Origin: Tannerellaceae bacterium
GTDB lineage: Bacteria; Bacteroidota; Bacteroidia; Bacteroidales; Tannerellaceae
Direction: 5' to 3'
Assembly (NCBI GenBank): GCA_031280435.1
Contig: JAITGS010000006.1
Span: forward strand, 1 to 32,118
DNA length: 32,118 nt
Below are positions 1 to 31,903 of this stretch, one piece after another. Positions within the stretch are counted from its first letter, which is position 1. Each line of letters begins with the position of its first letter. The notes under the pieces were generated by a model. The model was not told the DNA's origin and did no database searches. It saw only the letters and a list, made by a program, of their open reading frames with translations. The position numbers and the translations under genes were made by a program.

Positions 1-360
1 TTGATAAAACTCCATAGTAGAGATTTGTCCTATTAAACATTTATATCGCCTCCACACTTGTGGAAGCATTAGTTTTGTCAACAAGAAGCTTTCTCCATAG
101 TGGAGAAGCCTCTATTTTCTTCTGTTTTATCAAAACTCCATAGTGGAGATTGATCTGATTAAACATTTATATCGCCTCCACACTTGTGGAAGCATTAGTT
201 TTGTTGACAGAGGGCTTTCTCCACTGTGGAGAAGTCTCTATTTTTTATGTTTTATCAAAACTCCATAGTGGAGATTTATCTGATTAAACATTTATATCGC
301 CTCCACACTTGTGGAAGCATTAGTTTTGTTGAGAATAAGGCTTCTCCACTATGGAGAAGG
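1..360. repeat. Palindrome-rich tandem array (about 125-bp period, three copies)
   Basis: Three near-identical copies follow each other; the same landmark (AAAACTCCA) lies at 6, 132 and 257, giving periods of 126 and 125 bp. Each copy holds three short inverted repeats with a CTCCA core: CTCCATAGTGGAG, TCCACACTTGTGGA and a variant of TTCTCCATAGTGGAGAA. The CTCCA cores start at 10, 50, 93, 136, 176, 219, 261, 301 and 344, so the dyads are 40-43 bp apart. The array lies upstream of pnp and outside its probable promoter. It is cut by the window edge, so the true copy number is unknown. The short ORF through it is a product of the repeat. Confidence 0.93.
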
Positions 361-376
361 TGTCATCAGCTCGGCG

Positions 377-429
377 GAGGCTTCTCCCATCTTTCGCTTG
401 CGAGTATTTGCAAATAGGTGGGAGGCCTC
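377..429. other. Imperfect inverted repeat between array and pnp promoter
   Basis: The arms GAGGCTTCTCCCA (377-389) and TGGGAGGCCTC (419-429) pair except for a two-base bulge, with a loop of about 29 nt. There is no clear U-tract after it on the plus strand. It may be a terminator for a gene outside the window or a degenerate unit of the array; the sequence does not decide. Confidence 0.4.
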
Positions 430-481
430 TATGGATGTAGAGAGTTTTGGAAGCGACTTTTTAATATTCGCAATTCGTAAT

Positions 482-489
482 TAACTTTG
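482..489 (+). promoter_or_regulatory. Bacteroidota-type -7 element of pnp
   Basis: TAACTTTG matches the TAnnTTTG -7 consensus of the Bacteroidota primary sigma factor. It lies 43 bp before the pnp start codon. The region 19-23 bp upstream is T-rich but has no clean TTTG, so the -33 element is weak. Confidence 0.55.
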
Positions 490-532
490 GAGCGTTTTTA
501 CAGTGATAAACAATCAATAAAAAATTTCCTTT

Positions 533-2749
533 ATGCTAAATCCAATTAAAAAGACAATTGAGCTTGGTGATGGACGCACTATCACCATTGAGACGGGGAA
601 GCTGGCGAAGCAGGCCGACGGAGCCGTAGAGATCCGCATGGGCAACACAATGCTGCTTGCCACCGTAACAGCGGCGCAGGATGCCGTAGCGGGAACGGAT
701 TTCATGCCTCTTCAGGTAGAATACAAAGAGAAATTCTCTTCCTACGGACGCTTTCCGGGCGGCTTCACGCGGCGAGAAGGCAAGGCCTCGGATTATGAGA
801 TACTGACCTCGCGCCTTGTTGACCGAGCCCTGCGTCCGCTTTTCCCTGATGACTACCATGCCGAAGTATATGTTAATATCATACTTTTCTCCACAGACGG
901 CGAAGACCTGCCCGATGCTCTGGCCGGACTAGCCGCTTCGTCGGCCCTTGCCGTGTCGGATATTCCTTTCAACGGGCCGATTTCGGAAGTTAGAGTAGCC
1001 CGCATTGACGGGCAGTTTGTTGTGAATCCCACCGCCGCCCAGCTTTCAACGGCTGATATAGATATTATGGTTGGGGCAACGATTGAGAATATAATGATGG
1101 TGGAGGGCGAGATGGAAGAGGTGCAGGAGGCCGATATGCTCGAAGCCATAAAGGTTGCCCACGAAGCCATCAAGGTGCAATGCCGCGTGCAGCTCGAGCT
1201 GTCGGAAGCTTGCGGCAAACTCGAAAAGCGCGCTTACTCGCATGAAACCAACGACGACGATCTACGCCGCGACGTTCGCGAGAAATGCTACGATCAGGTT
1301 TACGCCGTTGCCATCGCCGCCCTTCCCAAGCACGAACGGGCCGAAGCATTTGCGAAGATCGTTGACGAATACAAAACCGCCTTCTCCGAAGAAGAGCTCG
1401 AGGAGAAAGCCGGAATGATAGCCCGCTACTATCACGACGTAGAGAAAGAAGCCATGCGCCGCGCCATCCTCGACGAAGGCAAACGCCTCGACGGTCGCTC
1501 AACAACCGAGATCCGCCCCATCTGGTGCGAAGCCGACTACATCCCCGGCCCTCACGGATCGGCCGTCTTCACACGCGGCGAAACACAGTCGCTCACCACC
1601 GTTACGCTCGGCACCAAAAGCGACGAGAAGATCGTCGACGATGTTCTCATCCAAGGCAAAGAGCGCTTTCTGCTACATTATAACTTTCCCCCATTCTCAA
1701 CCGGCGAGGCCAAAGCATCGCGGGGCGTTGGACGCCGAGAAGTAGGCCACGGCAATCTGGCCCATCGCGCCCTCAAGCGCATGCTGCCTAAGGACTATCC
1801 ATACGTTATACGCATCATCTCCGATATCCTCGAATCCAACGGATCATCGTCGATGGCCACCGTATGCGCCGGAACCCTGGCGCTGCTCGACGCCGGCGTT
1901 CAGATGAAGAAGCCCGTATCCGGAATAGCCATGGGATTAATCTCCGAGAACAAGGGAACGAACTTCGCCATCCTTTCGGATATACTCGGCGACGAAGATC
2001 ACCTTGGCGATATGGACTTCAAGGTAACAGGAACGAAAGACGGCATCACCGCCACGCAGATGGACATCAAGGTCGACGGCCTGTCTTACGAGATCCTGGA
2101 GCAAGCCCTCGCACAGGCAAAAGCCGGACGGCTGCACATACTCGAGAAGCTGACCGAAACAATGCCCGAAGCGCGCCCAGACTTGAAGCCGCACGCTCCA
2201 CGCATTGAGACCCTCACGGTCAACAAAGAATACATAGGCGCAATAATAGGCCCCGGCGGGAAAATCATACAGGGCATACAGGAGAAAACCGGTGCAACCA
2301 TATCTATCGAAGAGATAGACGGCGTGGGCCGCGTAGAAATAGCCGGAACGAACAAGGCCAGCATAGATGCGGCCGTGAAAGCCATCCGCGCCATTGCAGC
2401 CGTTCCGGAAGTAGGGCAGGTGTACGACGGCAAAATCGCCAGCGTGATGCCCTACGGAGCCTTCGTTGAATTTATGCCCGGCAAAGACGGCCTCCTGCAC
2501 ATCTCCGAAGTGGACTGGAAGCGGCTCGAGACCGTGGAGCAGGCCGGACTGAAGGAAGGCGACATCATACAGGTCAAACTCCTGGAAGTAGATCCCAAGA
2601 CGGGCAAGTTCAAGCTATCCCGGCGCGCCCTCCTTCCCAAGCCCGAAGGATACGAAGAACGTCCGCCGCGCGGCGAAAGAGGAGACAGAGGCGACAGAGA
2701 TCGGGATCGTGACAGAGACCGTGACCGCGGCCGCTCCCACAGGCGCTAA
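533..2749 (+). CDS. pnp: Polyribonucleotide nucleotidyltransferase (PNPase)
   Basis: PNPase degrades RNA 3'-to-5' by phosphorolysis in the cytoplasm. The 738-residue protein has the full family layout: first RNase PH domain (about 10-145, with [16 protein letters not shown]), helical linker (about 240-320), second RNase PH domain (about 330-545, with [12 protein letters not shown] and TATQMDIK around the active site), a KH domain with GPGG at 573-576, and an S1 domain from about 628 to 700. The last 30 residues are a basic/acidic tail of Arg-Gly-Asp and alternating Asp-Arg repeats, likely disordered. The start codon follows a -7 promoter element at 482-489 at a normal distance. The downstream porE-like gene begins 92 bp later on the same strand with a strong stem-loop between them. 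Identification is secure. Confidence 0.98.
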
Positions 2750-2800
2750 ACCGCTACGGTATCCGGAGTGAATCTCCAGCCGATGGCAATAAGAATGAGG

Positions 2801-2840
2801 CCCGTGCGTTAAATACAGTGAGCATTATTTAATGTACGGG
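2801..2840 (+). promoter_or_regulatory. 15-bp stem-loop ending one base before the porE-like start codon
   Basis: The arms at 2801-2815 and 2826-2840 form 15 consecutive pairs in RNA (two of them G-U) around a 10-nt loop. The stem ends at 2840 and the ATG is at 2842, so the whole translation-initiation region would be folded. No U-tract follows, which argues against a simple intrinsic terminator of pnp. A translational control element or an RNA-processing site between pnp and the porE-like gene is inferred. Confidence 0.6.
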
Positions 2841-2841
2841 C

Positions 2842-4818
2842 ATGAATTTCTTAAAACACATACAAATCTTCTTACTCATAGCTGCCGTCCTGCCCATATC
2901 CTGCAAGACGCCAAAGCTCTCGACCGCCGAGGAGAAGCAGCGCATAGGCGAATACTACGAAGCCGCCGCCATCTATCGCAAAGTCTACGCAAAAACTCCC
3001 CCCAAAGAACGAGCCGCTCGCGGATACATAGCCTTCAGGATGGGCGAATGTAACCGAGTCATCAATAACATCAGCCGCGCAGCCGGCGACTATCTCAACG
3101 CACTGCGCTATCAATATCCCGATACCACCCTGTATCTGCGCCTGGGGCAAACCCACCAGAAGCGCGGCCTCTACGCCGAGGCAATAAAATACTATAAAGA
3201 ATACCTCAAGATTAATCCCGGATACCTCCCGGCGCTGAACGGCATAAGCGGCTCGGAACTCGCGGCAGCCTGGAAGAAAAGCCCGTCGAGATACATAGTG
3301 CGGAGGATGGACAAGTTCAACTCCCGCTACTCCGAATTCAGCCCCATGCTGTACGGCGAGAAGTTCGACCAGCTCTATTTTGCCTCCTCACGCAAGAAAG
3401 CCAAAGACGCCAAGCCCAGCGGAGTCACAGGCCTCGCCAATAACAACTTCTATCTCGCCAAGCAAGACGATAAAGGCGTGTGGCAGGCTCCGGTCGAAAT
3501 TGAAGACCCGGTCAACACCGAGTTCGACGAAGGCGTGCCCTCCTTCACCGCCGACGGTAGCCTGATGTACTACACCTACTGCGCACAGGCCGCCGACGGC
3601 CCCCGAACGGCTGAAATCTACGCCGCCCCGCGCTCGAGCGCCGAATGGGGCAAGGGAGACAGAGTAGCCATAGTGAAAGATTCGGTTACAACGCTGGGGC
3701 ATCCGGCTGTTTCGCCCGACGGCGCCTACCTCTACTTTGTCTCTGATGTAACCGGAGGATACGGCGGCCGCGACATCTTCCGCGTGAAGCGCACCGGCAA
3801 CGATTTCGGCCCCATGGAGAACCTCGGCCCGCAGATCAATACGCCCGGCGACGAGATGTTCCCCTACGTGCGCGACTCGGTAACGCTCTACTTCGCATCC
3901 GACGGACATCCCGGGCTGGGCGGGCTCGACCTCTTTAAGGCCACCTTGGACAGCCTCGGCGTTTGGCATGTTGAGAACCTCAAGCCGCCCGTCAATTCCA
4001 TGGCCGACGACTTCGGCATCACCTTCGCCGGCCCGCTCGAAAAAGGATTCTTCAGCTCCAACCGTAACGACCTCCGCGGCTGCGACCACATCTACTCCTT
4101 CGAGCTCCCGACCCTCACCGTCGCAATCGAAGGCATAGTGGCCGACGTAGACGACAACCCGCTCGAAGATGCAACCGTCAGAATCGTGGGACGCGACGGC
4201 CTCAACGAAAAGGCTACGGTACGCAAAGACGGCTCCTATCGCGTTGAGCTGCGCCGCGACGTCAGCTACGTGATGATGGCAAGCGCCCGCGGCTACCTCA
4301 ACCAGAACTTCGAGCTCACCACCCTCGCCGAGGAGAAGAGCGAAACCTACGTAGTCGACTTCTTCCTCTCGCCCATCTACCGCCCCGTAGTTGTTGAGAA
4401 CATCTTCTACGCCTTTAATCAGGCTACACTGCGACCCGAATCCAAGGAGGCCCTCGACGAGATGATAAAGCTGCTCAACGACAATCCGAACGTCACCCTC
4501 GAATTCGGTTCGCATACCGACCGCATAGGCTCCGCCGCCTACAATGAAGGCCTGGCACAGCGACGCGCCCAATCCGTAGTCGACTATCTCATAGCCGCCG
4601 GCATCGCATCCGATCGCCTCGAGGCCAAGGGATACGGCAAAAGCGTGCCTAAGACCATAGACAGGAAGATAGCCGAGCAATACGACTTCCTCAACGAGGG
4701 CGACATCCTCTCAGAAGACTTCGTGAACGCCCTCACTCCGGAGCAACAGGCAATAGCCGACCAAATCAACCGGCGCACCGAGTTCAAAGTCCTGCGCTTG
4801 GATTACAACCTCTACTGA
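2842..4818 (+). CDS. porE: PorE-like outer-membrane lipoprotein: TPR, PD40 beta-propeller, carboxypeptidase-regulatory-like and OmpA C-terminal domains
   Basis: The 658-residue protein starts with a lipoprotein signal (cysteine 21 in PISC), so it is probably anchored to the outer membrane. Domains in order are TPR-like helices (about 25-140), WD40/PD40-type propeller repeats (about 160-425, with repeated motifs such as PAVSPDGAYLYFVSD and LGGLDLF), a carboxypeptidase-regulatory-like beta domain (about 430-515) and an OmpA C-terminal peptidoglycan-binding domain (about 530-655). In the last, the usual diaminopimelate-binding pair is present as D560 (HTD) and R575 (RRA). This is the layout of PorE (PG1058) of the Porphyromonas gingivalis type IX secretion system. 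Related proteins also occur without that system, and no other Por gene is in the window, so the role in secretion is inferred. Confidence 0.85.
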   Translation: MNFLKHIQIFLLIAAVLPISCKTPKLSTAEEKQRIGEYYEAAAIYRKVYAKTPPKERAARGYIAFRMGECNRVINNISRAAGDYLNALRYQYPDTTLYLRLGQTHQKRGLYAEAIKYYKEYLKINPGYLPALNGISGSELAAAWKKSPSRYIVRRMDKFNSRYSEFSPMLYGEKFDQLYFASSRKKAKDAKPSGVTGLANNNFYLAKQDDKGVWQAPVEIEDPVNTEFDEGVPSFTADGSLMYYTYCAQAADGPRTAEIYAAPRSSAEWGKGDRVAIVKDSVTTLGHPAVSPDGAYLYFVSDVTGGYGGRDIFRVKRTGNDFGPMENLGPQINTPGDEMFPYVRDSVTLYFASDGHPGLGGLDLFKATLDSLGVWHVENLKPPVNSMADDFGITFAGPLEKGFFSSNRNDLRGCDHIYSFELPTLTVAIEGIVADVDDNPLEDATVRIVGRDGLNEKATVRKDGSYRVELRRDVSYVMMASARGYLNQNFELTTLAEEKSETYVVDFFLSPIYRPVVVENIFYAFNQATLRPESKEALDEMIKLLNDNPNVTLEFGSHTDRIGSAAYNEGLAQRRAQSVVDYLIAAGIASDRLEAKGYGKSVPKTIDRKIAEQYDFLNEGDILSEDFVNALTPEQQAIADQINRRTEFKVLRLDYNLY

Positions 4819-4896
4819 TCTCAAATCCTACCTGCAAGCTGCTGCCGGAAGGCCCTCCCCTGTGAGGAGCTCCGGCGCTGCGGCCACCAACGAAAA

Positions 4897-4921
4897 CCGC
4901 CGAACAGTTACTGTCCGGCGG
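4897..4921 (-). terminator. Intrinsic terminator of the EF-G2-like gene, between convergent genes
   Basis: An 11-bp GC-rich stem (CCGCCG against CGGCGG at the base) with a 3-nt loop lies between the two convergent stop codons. On the minus strand the single mismatch becomes a G-U pair and the stem is followed by TTTTCGTT, so it fits a terminator for the minus-strand gene. On the plus strand no T-run follows. Confidence 0.7.
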
Positions 4922-4959
4922 CATCACTTTGTCAGGCTTCGGTTAGCATACTAAACACT

Positions 4960-7116
4960 TTAATCTTCTTCTTTACTTTCAGCGTATGCTTTAAGAAGCT
5001 TCTCCTGGACGTCGGTCGGGACGAGCTCATACGACGCAAACTTCATCGTGAACGAGGCTCGGCCGCCGCTTATGGAGCTGAGCGATGTGGAGTACGAGGC
5101 CATCTCCTTCAGAGGCACCTTGGCCAGCAGAATCTCGTATCCTTTCTCGCTGTTCATACCCATGATGATGGCGCGGCGCCCCTGCATGTCGCTCATCACG
5201 TCGCCCAGATAGTCGGCCGGCACGGATACTTCCACGTCGTAGATAGGCTCCAGAATCTTGGGGCCGGCTTCGCGGAAGGCTGTGCTGAAGGCGTTACGTC
5301 CGGCAAGCATGAAGGATATTTCGTTGCTGTCTACCGGGTGCATCTTTCCGTCGTACACCATGATGCGGACGTCGCGGGCATACGAGCCGGTGAGCGGGCC
5401 CTGCTCCATGCGAGCCATTACGCCCTTGAGGATAGCCGGCAGGAACCGGGCGTCGATTGAGCCGCCCACTATGCTGTTTACGAATACCAGCTTGCCGCCC
5501 CATTCCAGCTCTATGGTCTGAACGTCGCGCACGCTGATCTTGAACTCCTGGTTGCCGAAGCGATATACTTCGGGCGTGGGCATGCCTTCGTAGTAAGGCT
5601 CTACTATGAGGTGGACCTCGCCGAACTGTCCGGCGCCTCCGGACTGTTTCTTGTGGCGATAGTCGGCGCGGGCAGCCTTTGTGATTGTTTCGCGATAGGG
5701 AATCTTGGGTTCGATGTACTCAATCATCAGCTTCTCGTTGTTCTCCAAGCGCCATTTCAGGGTGCGGAGATGGAACTCGCCCTGGCCCGACACTATGGTT
5801 TGCTTCAGCTCCTTCGACTGTTCGATGAGCCATGTGGGATCCTCTTCGCGCATGCGGTTGAGGAGTTCGCTCAGCTTCTCGGCGTCGGCCTCGTTCAGCG
5901 GCTTGACGGCTCGGCGATACTTGGGGTTGGGATATTTGATGAAGTTGAAGGTATAGTCGGCTCCCTTGCCGTTCAGTGCATTGCCCAGTCGGAGGTCTTT
6001 GAGTTTCACGGTAGCGCCTATGTCGCCGGCCATGAGCTCCGTCACCTGGTTGCGCGTTTGTCCGGCCACGGTGAAGATCTGTGCGATGCGCTCCTTGGAG
6101 CCGCGGTTGGCGTTCAGCAGGTCGTCGCCCTCCTTAATCTTTCCCGATATAACCTTGAAGAATGAAATCTGGCCTATATGCTGCTCGACGGCGGTTTTGA
6201 AGAACAGCAGGCTCGTCGGGCCGTTCGGGTCGGGAGCTATGTCGATGCCGTCGGCGGTGCGCACGTGGGGCATCTTGTCGACCGTAGGCACCACGTTGCC
6301 CAGAAATTCCATGGTACGGCGAACGCACATGTCGCGTCCGGCGCATACGCAGAACACGGGGAACATGCCGCGCGTGGCAAGTCCGGCGCTTATGCCCATG
6401 CGCATCTCGTCTTCGGTGAGGCTGTCGTTTTCGAAGTATTTCTCCATCAGATTGTCGTCGTGCTCGGCGGCAGCTTCCACTAAGGCGGCATGGAGCTCGG
6501 CTGCCTTGTCGGCCTCGTCGGCAGGGATGTCGAGCACTTCCGGAACGCCTCCTTCGGGCTTCCAGCGGTACATCTTCATCTTCAGGACGTCGACCACGGC
6601 GTTGAAGTTAGCCCCCGGATTGATGGGATACTGAATCAGGACAACGTTCTTGCCGTACCTGTCTTTCAGCTGGGCAATAGTGCTGTCGAAGTCGGCAATA
6701 GCATTGTCGAGGTGATTAATTATAAAGATAACGGGCTTGCCGAACTGCTCCGTGTATCTGAACTGATTGATCGTGCCAACCTCCACGCCATACTGGGCGT
6801 TGAGCACCATGAGCGCCGTGTCGGTCACGTTCAGGGCGGATACGGCCCCGCCTATAAAGTCGTCGGAGCCCGGACAGTCGATAAAGTTGAGCTTGCGGCC
6901 TTGCCATTCCACACAAAAAACGGTGGACGACACCGAGTATCCGTACTCTTTCTCCACCGGATTATAATCGCAAACCGTTGTTCCTGCCTCCACCGTGCCG
7001 CGACGTTTGATTACTCCACCCTCGAAAAGCATGGCCTCGGCGAGGGTGGTTTTCCCGGAGCCGGAGCTTCCCAGGATTGCAATGTTCTTGATTTCGTTTG
7101 TTTGATATACTTTCAT
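4960..7116 (-). CDS. fusA2: EF-G paralogue of the Bacteroides EF-G2 type
   Basis: The 718-residue protein has the EF-G domain order: GTPase domain (about 1-270), domain II (about 300-385), then III, IV and V. The nucleotide-binding P-loop is GSSGSGKTT at 16-24. The G3 motif is DCPGSDDF, so serine 84 stands where translational GTPases carry the catalytic histidine of DTPGH. The G4 motif is NHLD (134-137) instead of NKxD. The sequence closely resembles, from memory, the Bacteroides thetaiotaomicron EF-G2, reported to support translocation without ribosome-stimulated GTP hydrolysis and to matter during carbon starvation and gut colonisation. That function is inferred here from family and motifs. 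The gene stands alone, with its own terminator and a possible promoter at 7167-7197. Confidence 0.92.
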   Translation of the reverse strand: MKVYQTNEIKNIAILGSSGSGKTTLAEAMLFEGGVIKRRGTVEAGTTVCDYNPVEKEYGYSVSSTVFCVEWQGRKLNFIDCPGSDDFIGGAVSALNVTDTALMVLNAQYGVEVGTINQFRYTEQFGKPVIFIINHLDNAIADFDSTIAQLKDRYGKNVVLIQYPINPGANFNAVVDVLKMKMYRWKPEGGVPEVLDIPADEADKAAELHAALVEAAAEHDDNLMEKYFENDSLTEDEMRMGISAGLATRGMFPVFCVCAGRDMCVRRTMEFLGNVVPTVDKMPHVRTADGIDIAPDPNGPTSLLFFKTAVEQHIGQISFFKVISGKIKEGDDLLNANRGSKERIAQIFTVAGQTRNQVTELMAGDIGATVKLKDLRLGNALNGKGADYTFNFIKYPNPKYRRAVKPLNEADAEKLSELLNRMREEDPTWLIEQSKELKQTIVSGQGEFHLRTLKWRLENNEKLMIEYIEPKIPYRETITKAARADYRHKKQSGGAGQFGEVHLIVEPYYEGMPTPEVYRFGNQEFKISVRDVQTIELEWGGKLVFVNSIVGGSIDARFLPAILKGVMARMEQGPLTGSYARDVRIMVYDGKMHPVDSNEISFMLAGRNAFSTAFREAGPKILEPIYDVEVSVPADYLGDVMSDMQGRRAIIMGMNSEKGYEILLAKVPLKEMASYSTSLSSISGGRASFTMKFASYELVPTDVQEKLLKAYAESKEED

Positions 7117-7166
7117 GTTTATCTGGAATATTAAATATTAGGTAAAACAATATTTTTTTTCGGGGC

Positions 7167-7197
7167 GAAAAATAGGGATTGTGTCCGACATGGGCAA
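7167..7197 (-). promoter_or_regulatory. Possible promoter of the EF-G2-like gene
   Basis: Read on the minus strand, TTG (complement of 7195-7197) is followed after 20 bp by TATTTTTC (complement of 7167-7174), one base off TAnnTTTG. The spacing fits the Bacteroidota -33/-7 layout, and the start codon is about 50 bp further on. Confidence 0.4.
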
Positions 7198-7459
7198 CAG
7201 CAACATTTGTGTTGTGCAACATATTCTTGGCCGCAGCATGCTCACGAACCCAAAAAGCCCGCCTGCAAGCCCTGCTTTGAGCCCTTACCGGCCTCTATAT
7301 CTCCAAACAAAAAGAGATTGGAAAGCAAACAATTCTGCTGCCGCATAAGCTAAACCTCTAACATCCGCTCCGCATAATCTCCTTCCACAGTCGGACTTAG
7401 CTTGCTGCGGAGACATTCCGGCGGCATGCCAGTGCAGCACAACTGTCCGGTTGTTTTCT
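7198..7459. other. Intergenic stretch without a recognisable gene
   Basis: No convincing ORF or RNA gene is seen. The only structure is an imperfect inverted repeat, CCGCATAAGCTAA at 7341-7353 against TTAGCTTGCTGCGG at 7397-7410, with a long loop. Confidence 0.5.
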
Positions 7460-7788
7460 CCGCAAGCCAACTGAGTCCTCATTTGGGCCCAAATTTTTTT
7501 CCGCAAGCCAACTGAGTCCTCATTTGGGCCCAAATTTTTTTCCGCAAGCCAAATGGGTCCTCATTTAGCTCCAAATTTTTTTCCGCAAGCCAAATGGGTC
7601 CTCATTTAGCTCCAAATTTTTTTCCGCAAGCCAAATGGGTCCTCATTTAGCCCCAAATTTTTTTCCGCAAGCCAAATGGGTCCTCATTTAGCTCCAATTT
7701 TTTTTCCGCAAGCCAAATGGGTCCTCATTTGGCTCCAAATTTTTTTCCGCAAGCTAAATGGGTCCTCATTTGGCTTGCGGAAAAAAAT
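7460..7788. repeat. 41-bp tandem array, eight copies, closed by an inverted unit
   Basis: Copies begin with CCGCAAGC at 7460, 7501, 7542, 7583, 7624, 7665, 7706 and 7747, an exact 41-bp period. In the later copies the unit carries the dyad GCCAAATG-ggtcct-CATTTGGC; the first two copies are diverged and hold TTTGGGCCCAAA instead. Units are joined by runs of about seven T. The eighth copy runs directly into an inverted unit, which creates a long hairpin (7739-7788). The array lies between the divergent EF-G2-like and pentapeptide genes and carries an ATG at 7758 that extends the pentapeptide frame artificially. Confidence 0.96.
7739..7788. other. 22-bp hairpin at the end of the 41-bp array
   Basis: The arms 7739-7760 and 7767-7788 pair over 22 bp around the loop GGTCCT, with one G-U wobble in RNA. 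The outer seven pairs are T against A. Because the T-run precedes and the A-run follows the stem, this is not a normal intrinsic terminator on the plus strand. Confidence 0.85.
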
Positions 7789-7884
7789 CGGGGCCAACTA
7801 AGTCCTCGTTTGGCTTAGGAACCCCTCATTTTGCCCTGACAGCGGCCACAATTCCGTCCAATTCCCTTTTCTCAACTTATCTTC

Positions 7885-7892
7885 TACCTTTG
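7885..7892 (+). promoter_or_regulatory. -7 promoter element of the pentapeptide/SGNH operon
   Basis: TACCTTTG matches TAnnTTTG and lies 27 bp before the ATG at 7920. No clear -33 TTTG is visible. It supports the start at 7920 rather than the upstream ATG inside the repeat array. Confidence 0.6.
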
Positions 7893-7919
7893 CAAACTAA
7901 ATATCAGGTTAATGCTATT

Positions 7920-11725: not shown

Positions 11726-11797
11726 CTCCCCCAAAAATCATCAACCCCAAATGACTTATATGCAATGAAAAACCTTGTTGCAGCGGAAAACCGCGAC

Positions 11798-12442
11798 ATG
11801 GTTCCAAGGAACCGCGACATGGTTCCAAGGAACTCCGGCATGGTTCCAAGGAACCGCGACATGGTTCCAAGGAACTGCGTCATGGTTCCAGGGAACTCCG
11901 TCATGGTTCTTAGGAACTCCGCCATAGTTCCAAGGAACCGCGGCATGGTTCCAAGGAACTCCGGCATGGTTCTTAGGAACTCCGGCATGGTTCTTAGGAA
12001 CTCCGGCATGGTTCCAGGGAACCGCGACATGGTTCCAAGGAACCGCGACATGGTTCCAGGGACCCGCGACATGGTTCCAAGGAACCGCGACATGGTTCCA
12101 GGGAACTCCGTCATGGTTCTTAGGAACTCCGGCATGGTTCCAGGGAACCGCGACATGGTTCCAAGGAACCGCGACATGGTTCCAAGGAACTCCGGCATGG
12201 TTCCAAGGAACCGCGACATGGTTCCAAGGAACCGTGACGTTGTAGCCGGCAACCGCGGCGTTGTAGCCGGCAACCGCGGCGTTGTAGCCAGCAACCGTGA
12301 CGTTGTAGCCGGCAACCGTGACGTTTTAGCCGGCAACCGTGACGTTGTAGCCGGCAACCGCGGCGTTGTAGCCGGCAACTGTGGCGGGGTTGCCGAATAC
12401 CGTGGCGGGGTTGCCGAATACCGCGGCGGGGTTGCCGACAAC
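11798..12442. repeat. 21-bp tandem array, about 31 units in three sequence blocks
   Basis: Units of exactly 21 bp repeat without a phase break. Block one (about 21 units) has the dyad GGTTCCAAGGAACC with variants such as GGTTCTTAGGAACT. Block two (about 7 units) changes to GTTGTAGCCGGCAAC. Block three (about 3 units) changes to GGGGTTGCCGAATACCG. As 21 is a multiple of three, frames stay open on both strands: plus-strand reading gives a heptapeptide MVPRNRD-like repeat, and a 292-residue frame also stays open on the minus strand (11623-12501). The array fills most of the gap between the two SGNH genes. The promoter at 12474 lies after it, so it is probably not translated with the downstream gene. 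Confidence 0.95.
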
Positions 12443-12473
12443 GATTCGAGGGTATTTGGCCTTTGCCGGAAAA

Positions 12474-12481
12474 TATCTTTG
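12474..12481 (+). promoter_or_regulatory. -7 promoter element of the second SGNH gene
   Basis: TATCTTTG is a perfect TAnnTTTG match 30 bp before the ATG at 12512. Two TTTG sequences occur just upstream (12455 and 12462) but closer than the usual spacing. The element lies between the 21-bp array and the signal-peptide start. Confidence 0.65.
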
Positions 12482-12511
12482 TCTATAAACATAAACTCCA
12501 TATTCTATACG

Positions 12512-22054: not shown

Positions 22055-22159
22055 GCGATATAATATAGGATAAAGAGCCTGCGTCGGATATAATTTTTGG
22101 GAAAGCTTCTCGTTTATACAGAGATAATACAATGTTAAACATTTAAAATACGATTAATA

Positions 22160-24762: not shown

Positions 24763-24775
24763 AAATATAAGCGTC

Positions 24776-26137: not shown

Positions 26138-26188
26138 AAAACCTGTGCACCTACCCGCTTTGGCTATTTCAGCACTACTTTCAGAGAT

Positions 26189-26459
26189 GTCCAAAATCAT
26201 TTTGAGTGTTCCCAAAATCATTTTGAGTGTTCCCAAAAGTGTTTTGAGTGTTCCCAAAATCATTTTGAGTGTTCCCAAAATCATTTTGAGTGTTCCCAAA
26301 AGTATTTTGAGTGTTCCCAAAATCATTTCGGGTGTTCCCAAAAGTATTTTGAGTGTCCCAAAATCATTTCGGGTGTTCCCAAAAGTATTTTGGGAGCACT
26401 CAAAAGCATTTCGGGGACACTCAAAATCGTTGCGGGAACACCCGCAATGATTGCGGGGA
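26189..26459. repeat. 21-bp tandem array, about 13 units, last units inverted
   Basis: Units of 21 bp (one of 20) carry the dyad CAAAATCATTTTG or its variant CAAAAGTATTTTG, joined by GAGTGTTCC. After about ten units the orientation flips (CACTCAAAA at about 26397 and 26418), and the array ends in a GC-rich triple-arm segment. Frames stay open on both strands, giving spurious ORFs of 101 residues on the plus strand and 283 on the minus strand. It fills the 384-bp gap between surA and the OstA-like gene. Confidence 0.95.
26430..26457. promoter_or_regulatory. Two mutually exclusive hairpins upstream of the OstA-like gene
   Basis: TTGCGGG (26430-26436), CCCGCAA (26441-26447) and TTGCGGG (26451-26457) follow one another with 4- and 3-nt gaps. 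The middle arm can pair perfectly with either flank, so two 7-bp hairpins compete. No U-tract follows. It may be regulatory or just the degenerate end of the array. Confidence 0.5.
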
Positions 26460-26521
26460 TGCTGCATTTCCTCTCCGCAGTACCTGTAAAGAACTCTTAT
26501 CAACCGCTTTAATATAACAGA

Positions 26522-28108
26522 ATGAGAGAACACACGGCCTTGATGCCGGCTATGACAACCGCTTTGCGCGGCCTGCTTGTCGCCTTGTTTGCTTTGGCGG
26601 CCGTTTATGACTCAACGGCTCAAACTCGCGACTCTATTTACCTTTTGCATACGAACGACTGGGTATACAACAAGGCTATTAATCCCGACGTTCAGGTTTT
26701 GAAGGGCGACGTATCCTTTAGACACGACAGCGCCTTCATGTACTGCGACAGCGCTTACCTGTACGACGCTTCCAATTCTTTCGAGGCTTTCGGCAATGTC
26801 AGGATGGAGCAGGGCGACACCTTGTTTATTTATAGCGATTGGTTGCATTATAACGGGAACACAAAGCTGGGTAAACTGCGACACAATGTGCGGATGATTA
26901 ACAACAATGTAACTTTGCTTACCGATAGCCTTAATTATGACAGGATTACCAACATCGGATATTATTTCACGGGAGGAACAATCATTGATGAAGAGAATAG
27001 GCTTTCGTCCGTGTTCGGACAATACTCTGTTGATACGAAGTTGGCTGTGTTTAAAGACTCGGTAATTGTGAAGAACGAGCAATTCACTTTGTATTCAGAT
27101 ACATTGAACTATGAAACCGACAATAAGATTGCAACCATACTCGGCCCCTCCGAGATAGTTTCGGACAGCGGCATCATATACTCCTCAAGAGGATGGTATG
27201 ACACTGCAGCCGGCGTATCATTGTTGCTCGATCGTTCTCAGATTGTTTCCGGCAATCGTATTTTAATAGGCGATTCAATAAGCTATCATAAAGAACTTGC
27301 ATTGTATGAGACTTTCGGCAACATGATCCTGATAGATACCGCGCAGATGGTTACGCTCAAAGGAAATTACGGATACTACGACGAGCTTCGCGAATTTGCC
27401 TATGCAACCGACAGCGCATGCTTCATGGAATACTCCGGCGGCGACACGCTCTACATGCATGCCGACACTATCCGGATGGAAACCATAGACTCCGCTTACC
27501 GCGAGATAAAAGCCTATTACGGAGTGAGATATTACCGTACCGATCTGCAAGGCGCATGCGATTCCCTGCAATACAACATGCGCGACTCGATTCTGTACAT
27601 GTTTAGCGATCCTGTTATATGGAACGAATCCTATCAGCTTTACGGCGACACTATCCTTATATTTATGAACGACAGTTCGGCCGATTATGCACACATCAAA
27701 CAGTTTGCCTTTGCCGTACAGCATCTGGGCGAAACCTACTACAATCAACTGAAGGGCAACGATATGAAAGCCTATTTCGAAGGCAGCGCCATCAGGCAGG
27801 TCGACGTCAGCGGCAATGCCGAATCAATCTTTTATCCTCTCGACAACGGCTTGATGGTGGAGCTCAACCACACCAAAAGCGCATACCTCACCATCTGGCT
27901 GCAAAACGGGCAGCTCGACAAGCTCAAGGCATGGCCGCAGCCGGAAGGCAGCCTCACGCCCATCCCCGACCTCTTCCCGGAGCAGAAAACCTTGCAGGAC
28001 TTCTATTGGTTTGATTACATACGCCCGACCGACAAGGACGACATCTACCACAAAGTGGCCAGGAAGTCCGGCGAATCTCCCAAGAGAAGCAATAAATTCG
28101 TATTTTAG
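26522..28108 (+). CDS. OstA-like (LptA/LptD N-domain-like) exported protein
   Basis: The 528-residue protein has an N-terminal signal peptide ending near STAQ. The start is uncertain because ATGs at 26543 and 26552 are also in frame. The mature part is a long run of beta-strand repeats typical of the OstA/LptA fold, with recurring pieces such as GDVSFRHDSAFMYCDSAYLYD, GNVRMEQGDTLFIYSD and SDTLNYE. OstA-family proteins form the periplasmic bridge that carries lipopolysaccharide to the outer membrane. A role in that transport is inferred from the family, and the neighbouring surA-like genes also serve outer-membrane biogenesis. No LptD barrel is seen. Confidence 0.88.
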   Translation: MREHTALMPAMTTALRGLLVALFALAAVYDSTAQTRDSIYLLHTNDWVYNKAINPDVQVLKGDVSFRHDSAFMYCDSAYLYDASNSFEAFGNVRMEQGDTLFIYSDWLHYNGNTKLGKLRHNVRMINNNVTLLTDSLNYDRITNIGYYFTGGTIIDEENRLSSVFGQYSVDTKLAVFKDSVIVKNEQFTLYSDTLNYETDNKIATILGPSEIVSDSGIIYSSRGWYDTAAGVSLLLDRSQIVSGNRILIGDSISYHKELALYETFGNMILIDTAQMVTLKGNYGYYDELREFAYATDSACFMEYSGGDTLYMHADTIRMETIDSAYREIKAYYGVRYYRTDLQGACDSLQYNMRDSILYMFSDPVIWNESYQLYGDTILIFMNDSSADYAHIKQFAFAVQHLGETYYNQLKGNDMKAYFEGSAIRQVDVSGNAESIFYPLDNGLMVELNHTKSAYLTIWLQNGQLDKLKAWPQPEGSLTPIPDLFPEQKTLQDFYWFDYIRPTDKDDIYHKVARKSGESPKRSNKFVF

Positions 28109-28136
28109 CCACGTTAAATTTTAATTAAGCATCATT

Positions 28137-28442
28137 ATGGCACTCTTACCTTTTTATAGCGTTCGCAAACCCAAGCAATTCGACCACAAGTACATTTATC
28201 ACGATCCCCGCAAAGAAGCCCTCGAAGAGCGCAAGCTCAAGGTGAAGCGCGAGATGGGCCTCGAAATCACTCCGGAAGACTATAAGCCTCAGATCAGAGG
28301 AACATTCATCGAAGGAACAACCCACCTGAGGAAGAGCGTGCTGCGCGGCGACGACATACGCTCGCGCAGGTACAAGAGCGGCAAGCTGGTACTCTTCGCC
28401 ACACTGCTCATCCTCATCCTTTGGTATTTCTTCCGCGGATGA
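28137..28442 (+). CDS. Small conserved protein with one C-terminal membrane segment
   Basis: The 101-residue protein is basic and hydrophilic (RKPKQFDHKY, YHDPRKEALEERK) up to about residue 80 and ends in one transmembrane segment (LVLFATLLILILWYFF), so it is probably tail-anchored in the inner membrane. From memory, similar small proteins precede mutL in other Bacteroidales, but no function is known to me. The stop overlaps the mutL start by 4 bp (ATGA), indicating translational coupling. Confidence 0.85.
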   Translation: MALLPFYSVRKPKQFDHKYIYHDPRKEALEERKLKVKREMGLEITPEDYKPQIRGTFIEGTTHLRKSVLRGDDIRSRRYKSGKLVLFATLLILILWYFFRG

Positions 28443-30247
28443 GCGATGTAATACATCTGCTGCCCGACAGTATTGCCAACCAGATAGCCGCCGGCGAAGT
28501 TATTCAGCGGCCGGCATCGGTTGTAAAAGAGCTGGTTGAGAACGCAATCGACGCCGGAGCAACATCCATCAAAGTATATATCAAAGAGGCCGGCAAGGCA
28601 TTAATCCAAGTCGTCGACAACGGCAAGGGAATGTCGTCGACCGACGCCCGTATGGCCTTCGAACGGCATGCCACCTCCAAGATCTCGACCGCAGCCGACC
28701 TCTTTGCGCTCCAAACGATGGGCTTCAGAGGCGAAGCACTCGCATCCATAGCCGCAGTGGCACAGGTGGAGCTGCGCACAAGGCTGCACGGCAGCGAGCT
28801 CGGCACTCGGCTGCTCATTGCCGGCTCCACCGTCCCGGAATCCACCATGGACGCTTGCGACGAAGGCAGCAACTTCTCGGTGAAGAACCTCTTCTTCAAT
28901 GTTCCGGCGCGCAGGCGCTTCCTCAAGTCGAACGACGTAGAGTTTCGCCACATCCTCAACGAATTTGAGCGCATAGCCTTAGTTAATCCGCAAGTCAATC
29001 TCTCGCTCTATCGCGACGATGCCGAGGTTTTTGTACTGCAAGACGCCGGAATGTTGCAGCGAATTGTTGACATATACGGCAAAGGACTGAACCGCAAGCT
29101 ACTTCCCGTAGGCATAGAAACCACGCTCGCCACCGTATCCGGATTCGTAGCGCGGCCGGATACCTCCAAGAAAAGAGGCTGGCTGCAATACTTCTTCGTC
29201 AACGGACGCTACATGAAGCACTCATGGTTTCATAAAGCAGTCATCACCGCCTACGAGCAGCTGATTCCCGCAGGCGAAATGCCCGACTACTTCATATACA
29301 TATCCGTCGACCCGGCAACCATAGACGTCAACATACATCCCACCAAGACTGAAATAAAGTTTGAAAACGAGCAGGCCATCTGGCAGATACTCCTGGCCGT
29401 TGTGCGCGAATCCCTCGCCAGGTCGAGCTCCATACCAAGCATAGATTTCGACACCGAAGACGCCATCGACATACCCGTGTATATAGCCGAAAACGTGAAG
29501 AATGCCGGCACGCCCTCCGTTCCCGTCAACAAAAACTACAATCCCTTCAGCTCCTCCGCCCCCTCATCGGCTCCTTTACAATCGGAGCTCGACTGGCAGG
29601 CCCTCCACGAGAATTTTGAAAAGACCAAGCAGTTGGTTATGCAAGCCGACGAACCCGCCCCAAACGATTCGCCGCTGTACATTCCGCACACATGCATACA
29701 ATATCGCGGGCGATTCATCATGACCACACTCAAATCAGGCGTAGCGCTCATCGACCAGCACCGCGCTCACACCAGCATACTCTTCGAGCAGTACCTGACC
29801 TGCATCAGGCAGCGAAAAGGAGCTGCGCAAAAGGTGCTGTTCCCCGAAATAATAGAGCTGACGGCCGCCGAAGAAGATGTGCTGTCCGCCGTGGCCGACG
29901 CTCTGCAATACGCTGGTTTCGAGCTCAGTCCCATGGGCAATCAAGCCTGGTCGATCAGCGCCATACCGGCCGGACTGGAAAAGCAAAACCCCGCCGCCCT
30001 CCTCAAAAACACCCTGGCGCAAGCCCTCGAAACAGGCAGCAAGCAGGCCACCGACGACATAGCCCGCACCATAGCCCTCTCCCTCGCGCGCGCCGCCGCC
30101 ATACCATGCGGTAAAGTCCTGTCGGAAGCCGAGATGGACGCCATGGTAGCTGCACTTTTCTCACTCTCATCTCCCACCTACACGCCCAACGGCAAACTCG
30201 TTTTGTTTATAGTTTCAAACAACGAGATAGAGAAAATGTTTCAGTAG
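28439..30247 (+). CDS. mutL: DNA mismatch repair protein MutL
   Basis: The start at 28439 overlaps the previous stop; an upstream ATG at 28421 would add six residues lying in the previous gene. The 602-residue protein has a complete GHKL ATPase: E34-N35-D38 in ENAIDAG, DNGKGM at 60-65, HATSK at 77-81 and GFRGEAL at 95-101. A linker of about 60 residues follows from about 355. The C-terminal domain holds DQHRAHTSILFE at 439-450, the position of the endonuclease motif DQHA(x)2E(x)4E, but with Arg and Thr replacing the Ala and first Glu. The C-terminal end has TPNGK where endonuclease MutLs have CPHGRP. Metal-dependent nicking therefore looks doubtful, although ATPase-driven signalling should remain. 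Confidence 0.97.
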   Translation: MSDVIHLLPDSIANQIAAGEVIQRPASVVKELVENAIDAGATSIKVYIKEAGKALIQVVDNGKGMSSTDARMAFERHATSKISTAADLFALQTMGFRGEALASIAAVAQVELRTRLHGSELGTRLLIAGSTVPESTMDACDEGSNFSVKNLFFNVPARRRFLKSNDVEFRHILNEFERIALVNPQVNLSLYRDDAEVFVLQDAGMLQRIVDIYGKGLNRKLLPVGIETTLATVSGFVARPDTSKKRGWLQYFFVNGRYMKHSWFHKAVITAYEQLIPAGEMPDYFIYISVDPATIDVNIHPTKTEIKFENEQAIWQILLAVVRESLARSSSIPSIDFDTEDAIDIPVYIAENVKNAGTPSVPVNKNYNPFSSSAPSSAPLQSELDWQALHENFEKTKQLVMQADEPAPNDSPLYIPHTCIQYRGRFIMTTLKSGVALIDQHRAHTSILFEQYLTCIRQRKGAAQKVLFPEIIELTAAEEDVLSAVADALQYAGFELSPMGNQAWSISAIPAGLEKQNPAALLKNTLAQALETGSKQATDDIARTIALSLARAAAIPCGKVLSEAEMDAMVAALFSLSSPTYTPNGKLVLFIVSNNEIEKMFQ

Positions 30248-30263
30248 AGATAAATCCCGGCAG

Positions 30264-30290
30264 CCTCTCAACGACTCGGTGAGAGAGAGG
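30264..30290 (+). terminator. Weak hairpin after mutL
   Basis: CTCTCA (30265-30270) pairs with TGAGAG (30280-30285), with an alternative register CCTCTC/GAGAGG. It is followed by TTTGATATAA rather than a solid U-run, so terminator function is uncertain. Confidence 0.35.
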
Positions 30291-30325
30291 TTTGATATAA
30301 AAAAATATGAACGGGGGGCAAAAAG

Positions 30326-30542
30326 AGATAATTACCGATTAAGAAAGCGGGTCATTCCCGCGAAGGCGGGAATCTCCGATCGAAAAACGGGACGATTGTA
30401 GTTATATCATAATAAAAACAACTACTATCGTCCCAGCTATCGATCGGAGATTGACTGCGTCGATTCTCGCAAGCTTAAAGCTTGCTTCGAATTCCCGCCT
30501 TCGCGGGAATGACCTATTTTTTTGAGCGGGCGGGAATTATCT
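30326..30542. repeat. MITE-like nested inverted-repeat element, copy A (with a 41-bp insert)
   Basis: The core arms start with GGTCATTCCCGCGAAGGCGG (30350 onward) and continue to TCTCCGATCGA. The right arm is the inverted copy, split by a 41-bp insert at 30453-30493, and ends at 30514. The insert contains the perfect palindrome GCAAGCTTAAAGCTTGC (30469-30485). Outer arms AGATAATTACCG (30326-30337) and CGGGAATTATCT (30531-30542) pair with one mismatch. The interior shares ACTATCGTCCCA with copy B at 31904-32088. No transposase is present, so it would be non-autonomous. Confidence 0.85.
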
Positions 30543-30575
30543 ATTGCTACAATGACCTGTTTTTTGGCGGGAATT
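30508..30575. repeat. Direct duplication of the right end of copy A
   Basis: AATGACCT followed by a T-run and GCGGGAATTAT occurs at 30508-30540 and again at 30551-30575, offset by 43 bp. The second copy is slightly shorter. It lies between copy A and the stop of the DUF6261-like gene. Confidence 0.7.
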
Positions 30576-30602
30576 ATTTTTGGGACTTGCTCCTCGCGGA
30601 GG

Positions 30603-31538
30603 TTACTCGCCGGCGAAGGGGTGTTCGTCGGGGTCGAGTTTGTGGGGCTCGTCGGTGGGGGGGTGGACCGGGAAGTCAGGAGCTTGCGGGGGGGTGATGT
30701 CCGGTTGCTGGGTTCCCGGAGGAGGGGGTGGCGACGGAGGTGTGGCCGGCGTTTGGCTGCCTTCGTCCTCCTTGTCCTTGTCCTCCTCTTTTTTCTTGTG
30801 CGCTTTGGCTATGGCGAGGCGGCGGTGGACTATGACGGTGTACTGCTCGACGGTGGCGTTGATGTAGTCTATTATCTCGTCGAGCGCGGCTATCTCGGCG
30901 GGGGCAGTTGCGCTGATTCTAAGGCCGTTGATTACCTGAACCAGAGTGCCGTACTCGCTTAGCAGCTTGACGCGCCACTGCCTTGTGGTGCCGGCCTGCT
31001 TGTGCGCGTGCTTGTCTACGTAGCGGCTTGAGTACAAGGCCTGGAAGTCGATGTTGAGCTGCTTCATTGCCGCGACATTGGCTGTCTGACCGAGCAGTGC
31101 GATGCGTGCGGCGTTTTCCGGTTTTTCCAGCTCCTGGATGAGGTTGGTGATATTGCCCGATTTGCCTTCGTACTCAAGCTTGGGCGTGCCGGCGTAGGTT
31201 CTGAAAATCAGCAGTAAAGCTCCGGCGGCCTCCTTCACATCGGGCGCTACCGCGTACTTGGCCGCATCTTTCACGGCGTGGTCAACCAGTCTGAACAAGC
31301 CCTTGCGCTCGCCGTCGAGTTTCTCGATTTTCTTTGTTTCGATAGAGGCCAAGACGTCTTTGAAGCTGATGTCGAAGCCGTTAAAGTCATCCAAGTATTT
31401 GTTGTACGACGCTTGCAGCCGCGGAATGGCTACAACTTTCTGATTCATGAACTCCACAAGTAGCTCATGCAATGTGAAAAGTTCCGCATTGCTCAAATTC
31501 TTACTCATCACGCTTTGGTGTGGGTCAATTAGTGCCAT
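30603..31538 (-). CDS. DUF6261-like protein with proline-rich C-terminus
   Basis: The 311-residue protein has no signal peptide. Residues 1 to about 235 are helical and look like the Bacteroidota-specific DUF6261 family (segments such as FTLHELLVEFMNQ and RYVDKHAHKQAG), recognised from memory only. Residues about 236-260 are highly charged (KAHKKKEEDKDKEDEG), and the last 50 are rich in proline, likely disordered. The first ATG is at 31538 and a second in-frame ATG lies ten codons later (31508), so the start is uncertain. Function is unknown. It is a single-gene unit between two MITE-like copies, with the 41-bp array upstream of its start. Confidence 0.75.
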   Translation of the reverse strand: MALIDPHQSVMSKNLSNAELFTLHELLVEFMNQKVVAIPRLQASYNKYLDDFNGFDISFKDVLASIETKKIEKLDGERKGLFRLVDHAVKDAAKYAVAPDVKEAAGALLLIFRTYAGTPKLEYEGKSGNITNLIQELEKPENAARIALLGQTANVAAMKQLNIDFQALYSSRYVDKHAHKQAGTTRQWRVKLLSEYGTLVQVINGLRISATAPAEIAALDEIIDYINATVEQYTVIVHRRLAIAKAHKKKEEDKDKEDEGSQTPATPPSPPPPPGTQQPDITPPQAPDFPVHPPTDEPHKLDPDEHPFAGE

Positions 31539-31668
31539 GTTTTTTGTAACTGTTTAATAGTTTATAAATAATTATGTAACCTCTGAAAAAAATTATTGGT
31601 CATATAGCTCCGCATGGTCGTCCCAAAATATGGACGCCCCGTATGCCTCGAAAGGCAGCTCAAAACCT

Positions 31669-31903
31669 GGAAAGTTTCCCGCCGGACGAAAGCAAGCTTT
31701 CCAGTTTCTGGAAAGTTTCCCGCCGGACGAAAGCAAGCTTTCCAGTTTCTGGAAAGTTTCCCGCCGGACGAAAGCAGACTTTCCAGTTTCTGAAAAGTTT
31801 CCCGCCGGACGAAGGCAGACTTTCCAGTTTCTGAAAAGCTTCCCGCCGAACGAAAGCAAGCTTTCCAGTTTTTGGAAAGTTTCCCGCCGAGCGAAAGCAC
31901 ACT
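31669..31903. repeat. 41-bp tandem array, six copies
   Basis: Copies begin (GGAAAGTTTCCC or variant) at 31669, 31710, 31751, 31792, 31833 and 31874, an exact 41-bp period. Between copies lies the perfect inverted repeat CTTTCCAGTTTCTGGAAAG, and the unit start GGAAAGTTTCC is itself palindromic. The last copy runs to 31903, where the second MITE-like element begins. The array sits about 130 bp upstream of the minus-strand DUF6261-like start. ORFs through it on both strands are repeat products. Confidence 0.95.

What the first reader, a model, noticed from the sequence alone, without database searches (positions are those of the whole stretch)
6..31903. Five unrelated intergenic arrays share one architecture: dyads spaced by about two or four helical turns
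Directly seen: five tandem arrays (1-360, 7460-7788, 11798-12442, 26189-26459, 31669-31903) have no common unit sequence, yet every unit carries an inverted repeat. Dyad spacings are about 41.8 bp on average (40-43), 41, 21, 21 and 41. These are close to 42 or 21 bp, four or two turns of B-DNA, which would put all dyads of an array on one face of the helix. All lie between housekeeping genes and upstream of at least one start. Inference: a genome-wide process (a repeat-generating enzyme, slippage at hairpins, or selection for phased structures binding a structure-recognising protein) makes new arrays from different seeds while keeping the period. I know of no described class that fits all of this.
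Basis: partly seen in the sequence, partly recalled or inferred. Interest (0 to 1): 0.85.

Follow-up and report, generated by a model that had tools for sequence, protein, structure and literature searches.

The report
Helix-phased repeat arrays beside DUF6261 genes
This bacterial genome is full of short DNA repeat arrays that differ in sequence but keep a spacing of about two or four turns of the double helix, and the four-turn kind often sits just upstream of genes of one uncharacterised protein family in several groups of gut and mouth bacteria, which points to a new gene-and-array partnership of unknown function.

Summary
All five arrays are real, and in a 31% sample of the genome 108 of 140 non-coding arrays have period 40-42 bp and 22 of 140 have 21-23 bp, in about 57 sequence families. 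Dyads are enriched but not universal: 58 of 159 arrays at p<=0.05. 41-bp units tend to carry a second dyad half a unit away, so dyads recur about every 20.5 bp, and dyad pairs change in a compensatory way.

Arrays of this kind were already known in Porphyromonas gingivalis (23-nt BrickBuilt, 41-nt MITE464/PgRS; PMC4596501), so 'no described class' is wrong for the arrays alone. New here: the 41-bp kind is tied to DUF6261 (PF19775), one copy of which lies beside window array 5. Of 64 DUF6261 genes tested in 14 genomes, 41 have an array upstream, all 41 with period 40-43 bp, well above other genes. One more case is in a complete Prevotella nigrescens plasmid.

My reading: helically phased sites for cooperative binding that controls DUF6261, with copies scattered elsewhere. 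The link is shown; the binding is inferred.

The parts
6..359 (.). Array 1: three 42-bp units forming a 126-bp higher-order repeat, with CTCCA..TGGAG dyads, upstream of PNPase; cut by the contig end
   Evidence: TRF; sequence; dyad p=0.02
7454..7775 (.). Array 2: 41 bp x 7.9, family F0 (half-unit TTTTTTTCCGCAAGC shared by several members plus a locus-specific half), between divergent EF-G and pentapeptide genes
   Evidence: TRF; nine F0 members; dyad p=0.07
7740..7788 (.). Inverted last unit of array 2, a long imperfect palindrome that ends the array
   Evidence: sequence, by eye; + and - matches at 7740-7759 and 7768-7787
11789..12438 (.). Array 3: 21 bp, several unit types (AACCGCGACATGGTTCCAAGG, then AACCGTGACGTTGTAGCCGGC), between two GDSL genes; produces a spurious long ORF
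   Evidence: TRF; sequence; dyad p=0.05 and 0.57
26191..26441 (.). Array 4: 21 bp; forward units, then inverted units from about 26388 (by eye); sits between SurA-like and OstA-like genes that abut in all 13 congeners examined
   Evidence: TRF; sequence; empty site
31667..31899 (.). Array 5: 41 bp x 5.7, family F1, 128 bp upstream of the DUF6261 start codon
   Evidence: TRF
31539..31666 (-). Region between array 5 and the DUF6261 start; 51-103 bp of it (reaching a few codons into the gene) match the flanks of six gene-less F1 arrays ('leader')
30603..31538 (-). DUF6261 (PF19775) gene, 311 aa, family of unknown function; 44 matches in this genome
   Evidence: Pfam E=7e-28; counts; alignment
31904..32088 (.). 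Palindromic MITE-like element with 24-bp terminal inverted repeats (22 of 24 match, by eye) abutting array 5; relatives flank other arrays
   Evidence: sequence

Best explanation
These are intergenic arrays of dyads spaced by about two helical turns. In the 21-bp kind the unit is at most one dyad; in the 41-bp kind it is often two different dyads about 20.5 bp apart. The 41-bp kind is the upstream element of many DUF6261 genes: such a gene has its own private array just upstream of its promoter. The most likely mechanism, which is inferred, is that the dyads lie on one face of the helix and are filled cooperatively by a dimeric protein, either DUF6261 itself or a partner, which controls the promoter. 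The sequence can drift as protein and sites change together, while the spacing cannot. Array copies, in some families with shared flanks, then spread to other intergenic sites as gene-less (solo) arrays, where they may be passive or act as extra target sites. Shown: arrays, periods, dyad enrichment, half-period dyads, compensatory changes, DUF6261 link, dispersal, an empty site. Inferred: protein binding, promoter control, how copies move.
For: Period peak in 140 arrays and in 55 of 57 families. Second dyad at half a unit: p=0.0002 in 71 units, also in the 45 own-genome family representatives (p=0.002) and the 26 arrays of other genomes (p=0.004) taken apart; shuffled control p=0.33; arms limited so that the two dyads share no pair. 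Double changes in dyad pairs: 146 complementary and 75 not, against 54 and 117 for other pairs. DUF6261 link: first seen in 11 of 14 genes of the sample, all on the 5' side. Final table 41 of 64 genes in 14 genomes, every array with a 39-43 bp period. Against other genes with at least a 150-bp upstream gap, same rule for both and leaving out genes on stretches picked for or holding the query arrays: G000 13/14 v 116/283, T. forsythia 4/6 v 12/98, G009 3/3 v 10/28, G012 4/4 v 5/20, G010 2/3 v 3/12; stratified z=6.2. Bacteroidota -7 motif TAnnTTTG (recalled) within 120 bp of 29 of 64 starts, 3.6 expected from shuffles; arrays end a median 114 bp before the start. Array similarity follows protein similarity (Mantel rho 0.21, p=0.0065, 28 genes). 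The P. nigrescens DUF6261 gene has a 41-bp array ending about 70 bp upstream of its likely start.
Against: DUF6261 has no recognisable DNA-binding fold: no significant PDB match by sequence, a poor single-sequence model (pLDDT 43, helical), and a pI of the first 235 residues from 5.2 to 9.5 in 18 proteins. 23 of 64 DUF6261 genes have no array (only 0 of 3 in G005, 0 of 4 in G007 and 1 of 6 in P. gordonii have one); the Riemerella gene has none. Most arrays are not beside DUF6261: 11 of 136 elements of the sample are. Families F5 and F8 have no member near any listed DUF6261 gene (against the incomplete lists, by eye). No solo array carries a DUF6261 stub: the 13 matched stretches all lie beside the 11 linked arrays. 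The 21-23 bp kind has no gene partner that I could find. Dyads are not detectable in 101 of 159 arrays. G005 and G002, with 30 and 20 DUF6261 matches, gave 0 of 3 and 0 of 1.
Confidence: 0.42

Rival explanations
1. Minisatellite-bearing MITEs, as in P. gingivalis: non-autonomous transposable elements with a leader, a tandem core and a tail, moved by transposases in trans. DUF6261 is cargo, or merely sits where they collect.
For: Dispersed families with conserved leader and tail (F1 and F8); 92 of 253 flanks have relatives among other flanks; E79 has inverted flanks of about 55 bp (by eye); an empty site in 13 of 13 congeners for array 4; the same periods in P. gingivalis MITEs.
Against: 161 of 253 flanks have no relative. 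Transposition explains neither one period across unrelated units nor the placement upstream of 41 of 64 DUF6261 genes in several genera. I identified no consistent TIR or target duplication, but made no systematic search for them.
Confidence: 0.28
2. Replication slippage at hairpins: dyads stall the polymerase and arrays grow by misalignment, with no function; the period reflects a physical preference of the replication machinery of these bacteria.
For: Homogeneous units within an array and higher-order repeats, orientation switches seen by eye; dyads enriched; an array absent from the sister sites.
Against: It does not predict the DUF6261 link or a fixed 40-43 bp with only one array near 30 bp (period 33) in 140, nor compensatory changes between loci. 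Control stretches of other orders (205,037 bp) and other classes (141,108 bp) have no array of these periods.
Confidence: 0.15
3. Inherited period: all 41-bp arrays descend from one ancient array beside an ancestral DUF6261 gene; sequence drifted and the period stayed because indels spread less easily than substitutions.
For: Shared CGCAAG and T-tract words in 10-12 of 45 families; a common half-unit in F0 and, by eye, a similar one in T. forsythia; array similarity follows protein similarity.
Against: Extensive sequence turnover with period held to 40-43 across several Bacteroidales families suggests constraint as well; P. gingivalis and other Bacteroidales arrays also come as 22-23 bp units.
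Confidence: 0.1
4. REP/RAYT-like pair in which DUF6261 is a domesticated mobilising enzyme that copies its cognate array.
For: Multi-copy protein family with upstream repeats and dispersed copies.
Against: No Y1 transposase match in G000; in the 18 aligned DUF6261 proteins only M, R and R are invariant, with no catalytic motif to be seen.
Confidence: 0.05

Closest known systems
MITE464/PgRS and BrickBuilt elements of Porphyromonas gingivalis (PMC4596501)
   Same: Intergenic tandem arrays with 41-nt and 23-nt units in a Bacteroidales genome; no sequence homology between the two kinds; dispersed copies; flanking segments; stem-loops predicted for BrickBuilt.
   Different: Here about 57 families in 31% of one genome, against two array-bearing MITE kinds there; most flanks have no relative; no IS5-type terminal repeats were identified (not compared); the 41-bp kind is often upstream of DUF6261 genes. 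The section and passages I read report no gene partner, common period rule or dyad phasing.
REP/BIME elements with RAYT (TnpA-REP) genes (recalled; PMC3733652 seen in a search listing only)
   Same: Multi-copy palindromic intergenic repeats associated with a multi-copy gene family.
   Different: No Y1 transposase match in this genome; no GTAG/CGTC tag was sought; unit sequence varies while period is held.
Iterons upstream of plasmid rep genes (recalled, not tested)
   Same: Tandem sites about two helical turns apart upstream of the gene for the protein that binds them; private sequence for each protein.
   Different: Many copies per genome, dyad units, and DUF6261 proteins matched no Rep family in the Pfam scans.

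Membership tests
BrickBuilt / MITE464-PgRS type minisatellite MITE | Intergenic tandem array with 22-23 or 41 nt units | tested here: met
   108 and 22 of 140 non-coding arrays at 40-42 and 21-23 bp
BrickBuilt / MITE464-PgRS type minisatellite MITE | Conserved leader and tail flanking the array in family members | tested here: inconclusive
   Clear in F1 and F8; 92 of 253 flanks have a relative, many through one common palindromic MITE
BrickBuilt / MITE464-PgRS type minisatellite MITE | Terminal inverted repeats matching an IS5-family element, and target duplication | not tested
   TIRs seen only by eye at E79 and at the MITE beside array 5; no IS comparison was made
BrickBuilt / MITE464-PgRS type minisatellite MITE | Sequence homology to the P. 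gingivalis units | not tested
   No P. gingivalis sequence was fetched
REP with RAYT | Y1 (HUH) transposase in the genome | tested here: not met
   PF01797: no match in G000; 6 of the 18 genomes searched match; the assembly is 83% complete
CRISPR | Identical repeats separated by differing spacers | tested here: not met
   In the five window arrays and the TRF consensuses whole units repeat, including the locus-specific half
Known structured RNA family | Rfam match over the arrays | tested here: not met
   No match in the window at gathering thresholds

The most novel reading that the evidence does not exclude
DUF6261 and its upstream array form a new kind of genetic pair: a multi-copy protein family of Bacteroidota in which each paralogue recognises its own array of helically phased dyads. 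Sequence specificity evolves freely because only dyad symmetry and a two-turn spacing are selected. The scattered gene-less arrays are its targets across the genome, a set of parallel, mutually insulated regulatory or nucleoid-organising circuits.
Probability: 0.3. Interest if true: 0.92.

Novelty: new variant of a known kind. Interest (0 to 1): 0.8.

Why it matters
Tandem repeats of 22, 23 and 41 nt have been known in P. gingivalis for years, without a common rule or a gene partner in what I read. The same periods appear in other Bacteroidales with differing sequences, and one uncharacterised protein family sits downstream of the 41-bp kind in several families of the order. That gives DUF6261, for which one search found a single passing mention, a concrete test: does it bind helically phased dyads? 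It also makes the fixed period testable by half-turn insertions.

Tried and rejected
REP/RAYT: no Y1 transposase match in G000. Known RNA: none in the window. One gene partner for the 21-23 bp arrays: 21 genes downstream of such arrays share no family beyond 3 of a 27-member cluster. Solo arrays as deletion derivatives with a DUF6261 stub: no solo hit. A linked 'master' for every family: F5 and F8 have none among the listed genes. Divergent-promoter preference: 36 of 64 divergent gaps hold an array against 48 of 427 tandem and 13 of 68 convergent, but per kb of non-array gap it is only 1.08, 0.71 and 0.54, so little weight is put on it. My first half-period dyad test used arms that could share pairs between the two dyads; it was redone with shorter arms. 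My first Fisher and stratified tests (z=7.0) did not hold DUF6261 genes to the same gap and non-coding rule as the control genes, included genes on stretches picked for arrays, and counted one weak 22-bp array in G007 that the final table does not; they were redone for five genomes (z=6.2), where T. forsythia L264 is not counted as having an array. G005, G007 and G002 are not in that redone test; they gave 0/3, 0/4 and 0/1. DUF6261 in viral contigs: none with one protein; a profile query could not be made. PHROGs, NCBIfam and PADLOC gave only weak scattered hits. E. coli match of the array-5 leader: none. Fold comparison was not run, because the model is too poor. The compensatory-change test uses 321 overlapping unit pairs, so its p value is too small; the ratio is the result. 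A few of the 71 units are related to each other (F0-like units of G009). The gene caller is my own simple one. PMC5771137 was looked through for tandem repeats by terms only and gave nothing relevant.
Full report
What the window is. The window is contig C45 of a 3,057,007-base assembly in 143 contigs, 83% complete. Its MutL is 50-63% identical to the 80 best relatives kept, the highest being Tannerellaceae and Parabacteroides. Genes named from Pfam domains include PNPase, OmpA, EF-G, a pentapeptide protein, two GDSL hydrolases, MBOAT, trigger factor, ClpP, ClpX, RecQ, PPIases, OstA, MutL and DUF6261 (the gene names are my reading of the domains).

The five arrays are real. TRF places them at 6-359, 7454-7775, 11789-12438, 26191-26441 and 31667-31899 with periods 126 (3x42), 41, 21, 21 and 41. 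Dyads against shuffled units: p=0.02, 0.07, 0.05 and 0.57 (two unit types of array 3), 0.045 and 0.01. By eye, arrays 2 and 4 end in inverted units.

Genome-wide period. I read 958,827 bp in 61 stretches. Eight of these are the window or hold array-5 hits; five were chosen for that. Of 165 arrays of at least 80 bp and score at least 100, 140 were called non-coding: 108 have smallest period 40-42, 22 have 21-23 and 10 have other values. Without the eight stretches 790,567 bp hold 111 non-coding arrays. Neighbouring arrays merge into 136 elements in 57 sequence families, 23 of them with a single member. The family representatives have period 40-42 in 44, 21-23 in 11, 33 in one and 46 in one. The families are not fully unrelated: CGCAAG occurs in 10 of 45 long-period families against 0.9 expected, and T-tract words in 12. 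In family F0 a half-unit TTTTTTTCCGCAAGC recurs with a different other half at several loci.

Other genomes. In 80 stretches of other Bacteroidales (1,463,172 bp) there are 24 arrays. Of the 19 non-coding ones, 10 have period 22-23, 2 have 41 and 7 have other values. Tannerella forsythia (375,375 bp) has 15 arrays, of which 13 have smallest period 20-22 or 41-42; most of these stretches lie on contigs with hits to one of its arrays. In 498,391 bp of congeners other than G009 there are 23 arrays, mostly of 21-23 and 43 bp. Other orders of the class (205,037 bp, 5 arrays) and other classes (141,108 bp, none) have no array of these periods.

Dyads. 58 of 159 arrays and 24 of 57 families have a dyad at p<=0.05, many times the 5% expected, but not all. 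In 71 units of 39-43 bp (45 own-genome family representatives, 26 arrays of other genomes) a second dyad lies half a unit from the first more often than elsewhere (3.08 against 2.65, p=0.0002). This also holds in the two sets apart (p=0.002 and p=0.004), and not in shuffled units (p=0.33). Dyads therefore tend to recur about every 20.5 bp, close to two helical turns. Where two alignable units differ on both sides of a dyad pair, 146 changes keep complementarity and 75 do not; for other complementary position pairs the figures are 54 and 117. The unit pairs overlap, so the p value is not to be taken at face value.

Turnover. Array 4 lies in a 384-bp gap between SurA-like and OstA-like genes. 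In 13 of 13 congener stretches with both genes the gap is closed (extrapolated -33 to -4 bp) and no array lies there. Array-2-like sequences occur in one of 17 congeners examined (G009).

DUF6261. Clustering the 620 called genes of the sample showed one multi-copy family with 14 members, 11 of which have a 40-42 bp array 64-217 bp away, always on the 5' side. It is DUF6261 (PF19775; for the window member, for others). The 11 arrays belong to ten array families. The genome has 44 PF19775 matches and the 17 congeners have 2 to 40 (one search scored fewer candidates and gave 28 for this genome). 14 of 119 sampled Bacteroidales genomes, this one included, have at least one, and none of 14 control genomes does. 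I then looked upstream of genes not used to find the link. Final table, genes with at least 150 bp of upstream sequence: G000 15/16, G009 6/6, T. forsythia 5/7, G010 2/3, G005 0/3, G002 0/1, P. gordonii 1/6, Mediterranea sp. Hm464 4/6, G012 4/4, G007 0/4, G175 2/3, G164 1/3, G111 1/1, G162 0/1; together 41 of 64. All 41 arrays have a period of 40-43 (4, 19, 17 and 1 of 40, 41, 42 and 43 bp), and 19 of 41 have a dyad at p<=0.05. Three of the six G009 genes and the window gene lie on stretches picked for arrays.

Control. Genes other than DUF6261 with at least a 150-bp upstream gap have an array in 116/283 (G000), 12/98 (T. forsythia), 10/28 (G009), 5/20 (G012), 3/12 (G010), 0/8 (G005) and 0/11 (G007). 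Under the same rule, and leaving out genes on stretches picked for or holding the query arrays, DUF6261 genes have one in 13/14, 4/6, 3/3, 4/4 and 2/3 of the first five genomes; stratified z=6.2, p=3e-10. The promoter motif TAnnTTTG (recalled) lies within 120 bp of 29 of 64 starts against 3.6 expected, mostly 36-51 bp before the start, and the arrays end a median 114 bp before it, so as a rule they lie upstream of the promoter.

Named check. The Prevotella nigrescens plasmid NZ_CP082843.1 carries a DUF6261 gene near conjugative-transposon genes, with a 41-bp array that ends about 70 bp before the likely start; the annotated start falls inside the array. In the three stretches read of this record (140,498 bp) the other arrays have periods 22, 22, 23 and one of 9/120. 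The Riemerella anatipestifer DUF6261 gene has no array.

What it does. DUF6261 has no significant PDB relative by sequence, a poor single-sequence model (mean pLDDT 43, helical) and one passing mention in a table found by the one search for its name (passage read). I infer that phased dyads upstream of its promoter are a cooperative binding platform for DUF6261 or a partner, and that solo arrays are dispersed copies. Six solo arrays of family F1 share 51-103 bp with the region between array 5 and the DUF6261 start. Solo arrays carry no DUF6261 stub, two of the larger families have no linked member among the listed genes, and 23 of 64 DUF6261 genes lack an array, so the pair is not obligatory.

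Known relatives. P. gingivalis carries 23-nt BrickBuilt and 41-nt MITE464/PgRS elements, and 22-nt repeats were reported in strain W83 (PMC4596501: abstract, passages and part 1 of section 7 read). The arrays are therefore a known kind. I found no report of the DUF6261 link, the common period rule or the half-period dyads in paper searches, which cover open-licence PubMed Central papers only.

Noticed in passing
window 31904-32088: A palindromic MITE-like element with 24-bp terminal inverted repeats abuts array 5; relatives lie in the flanks of arrays of many other families.
   Followed up: partly
own-genome sample: 18 of 89 true contig ends in the sample have an array element within 60 bp, so the arrays probably break the assembly and their number is underestimated.
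   Followed up: partly
window 11765-12511: The 21-bp array reads through as 7-codon repeats and creates a spurious N-terminal extension of the GDSL2 gene; automatic annotation may mistake such arrays for protein repeats.
   Followed up: no
L308 19516-20600 (NZ_CP082843.1): DUF6261 and its 41-bp array lie near conjugative-transposon genes, and both the array and the gene have a second place in the same record; the pair may travel together.
   Followed up: partly
L310, ORF from 3878 (MT837725.1): An unannotated 6.3-kb human faecal record labelled a phage encodes a DUF6261-like domain (own profile, E=1.6e-14); it may be a bacterial fragment.
   Followed up: no
L038 10-2707: One DUF6261 gene has 40-bp arrays of different families on both sides.
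   Followed up: no
C-termini in alignment A1: Many own-genome DUF6261 proteins share a low-complexity tail ending in ..DEPHHLDPNEHPAMGE; the T. forsythia member and some congener members of the alignment lack it.
   Followed up: no
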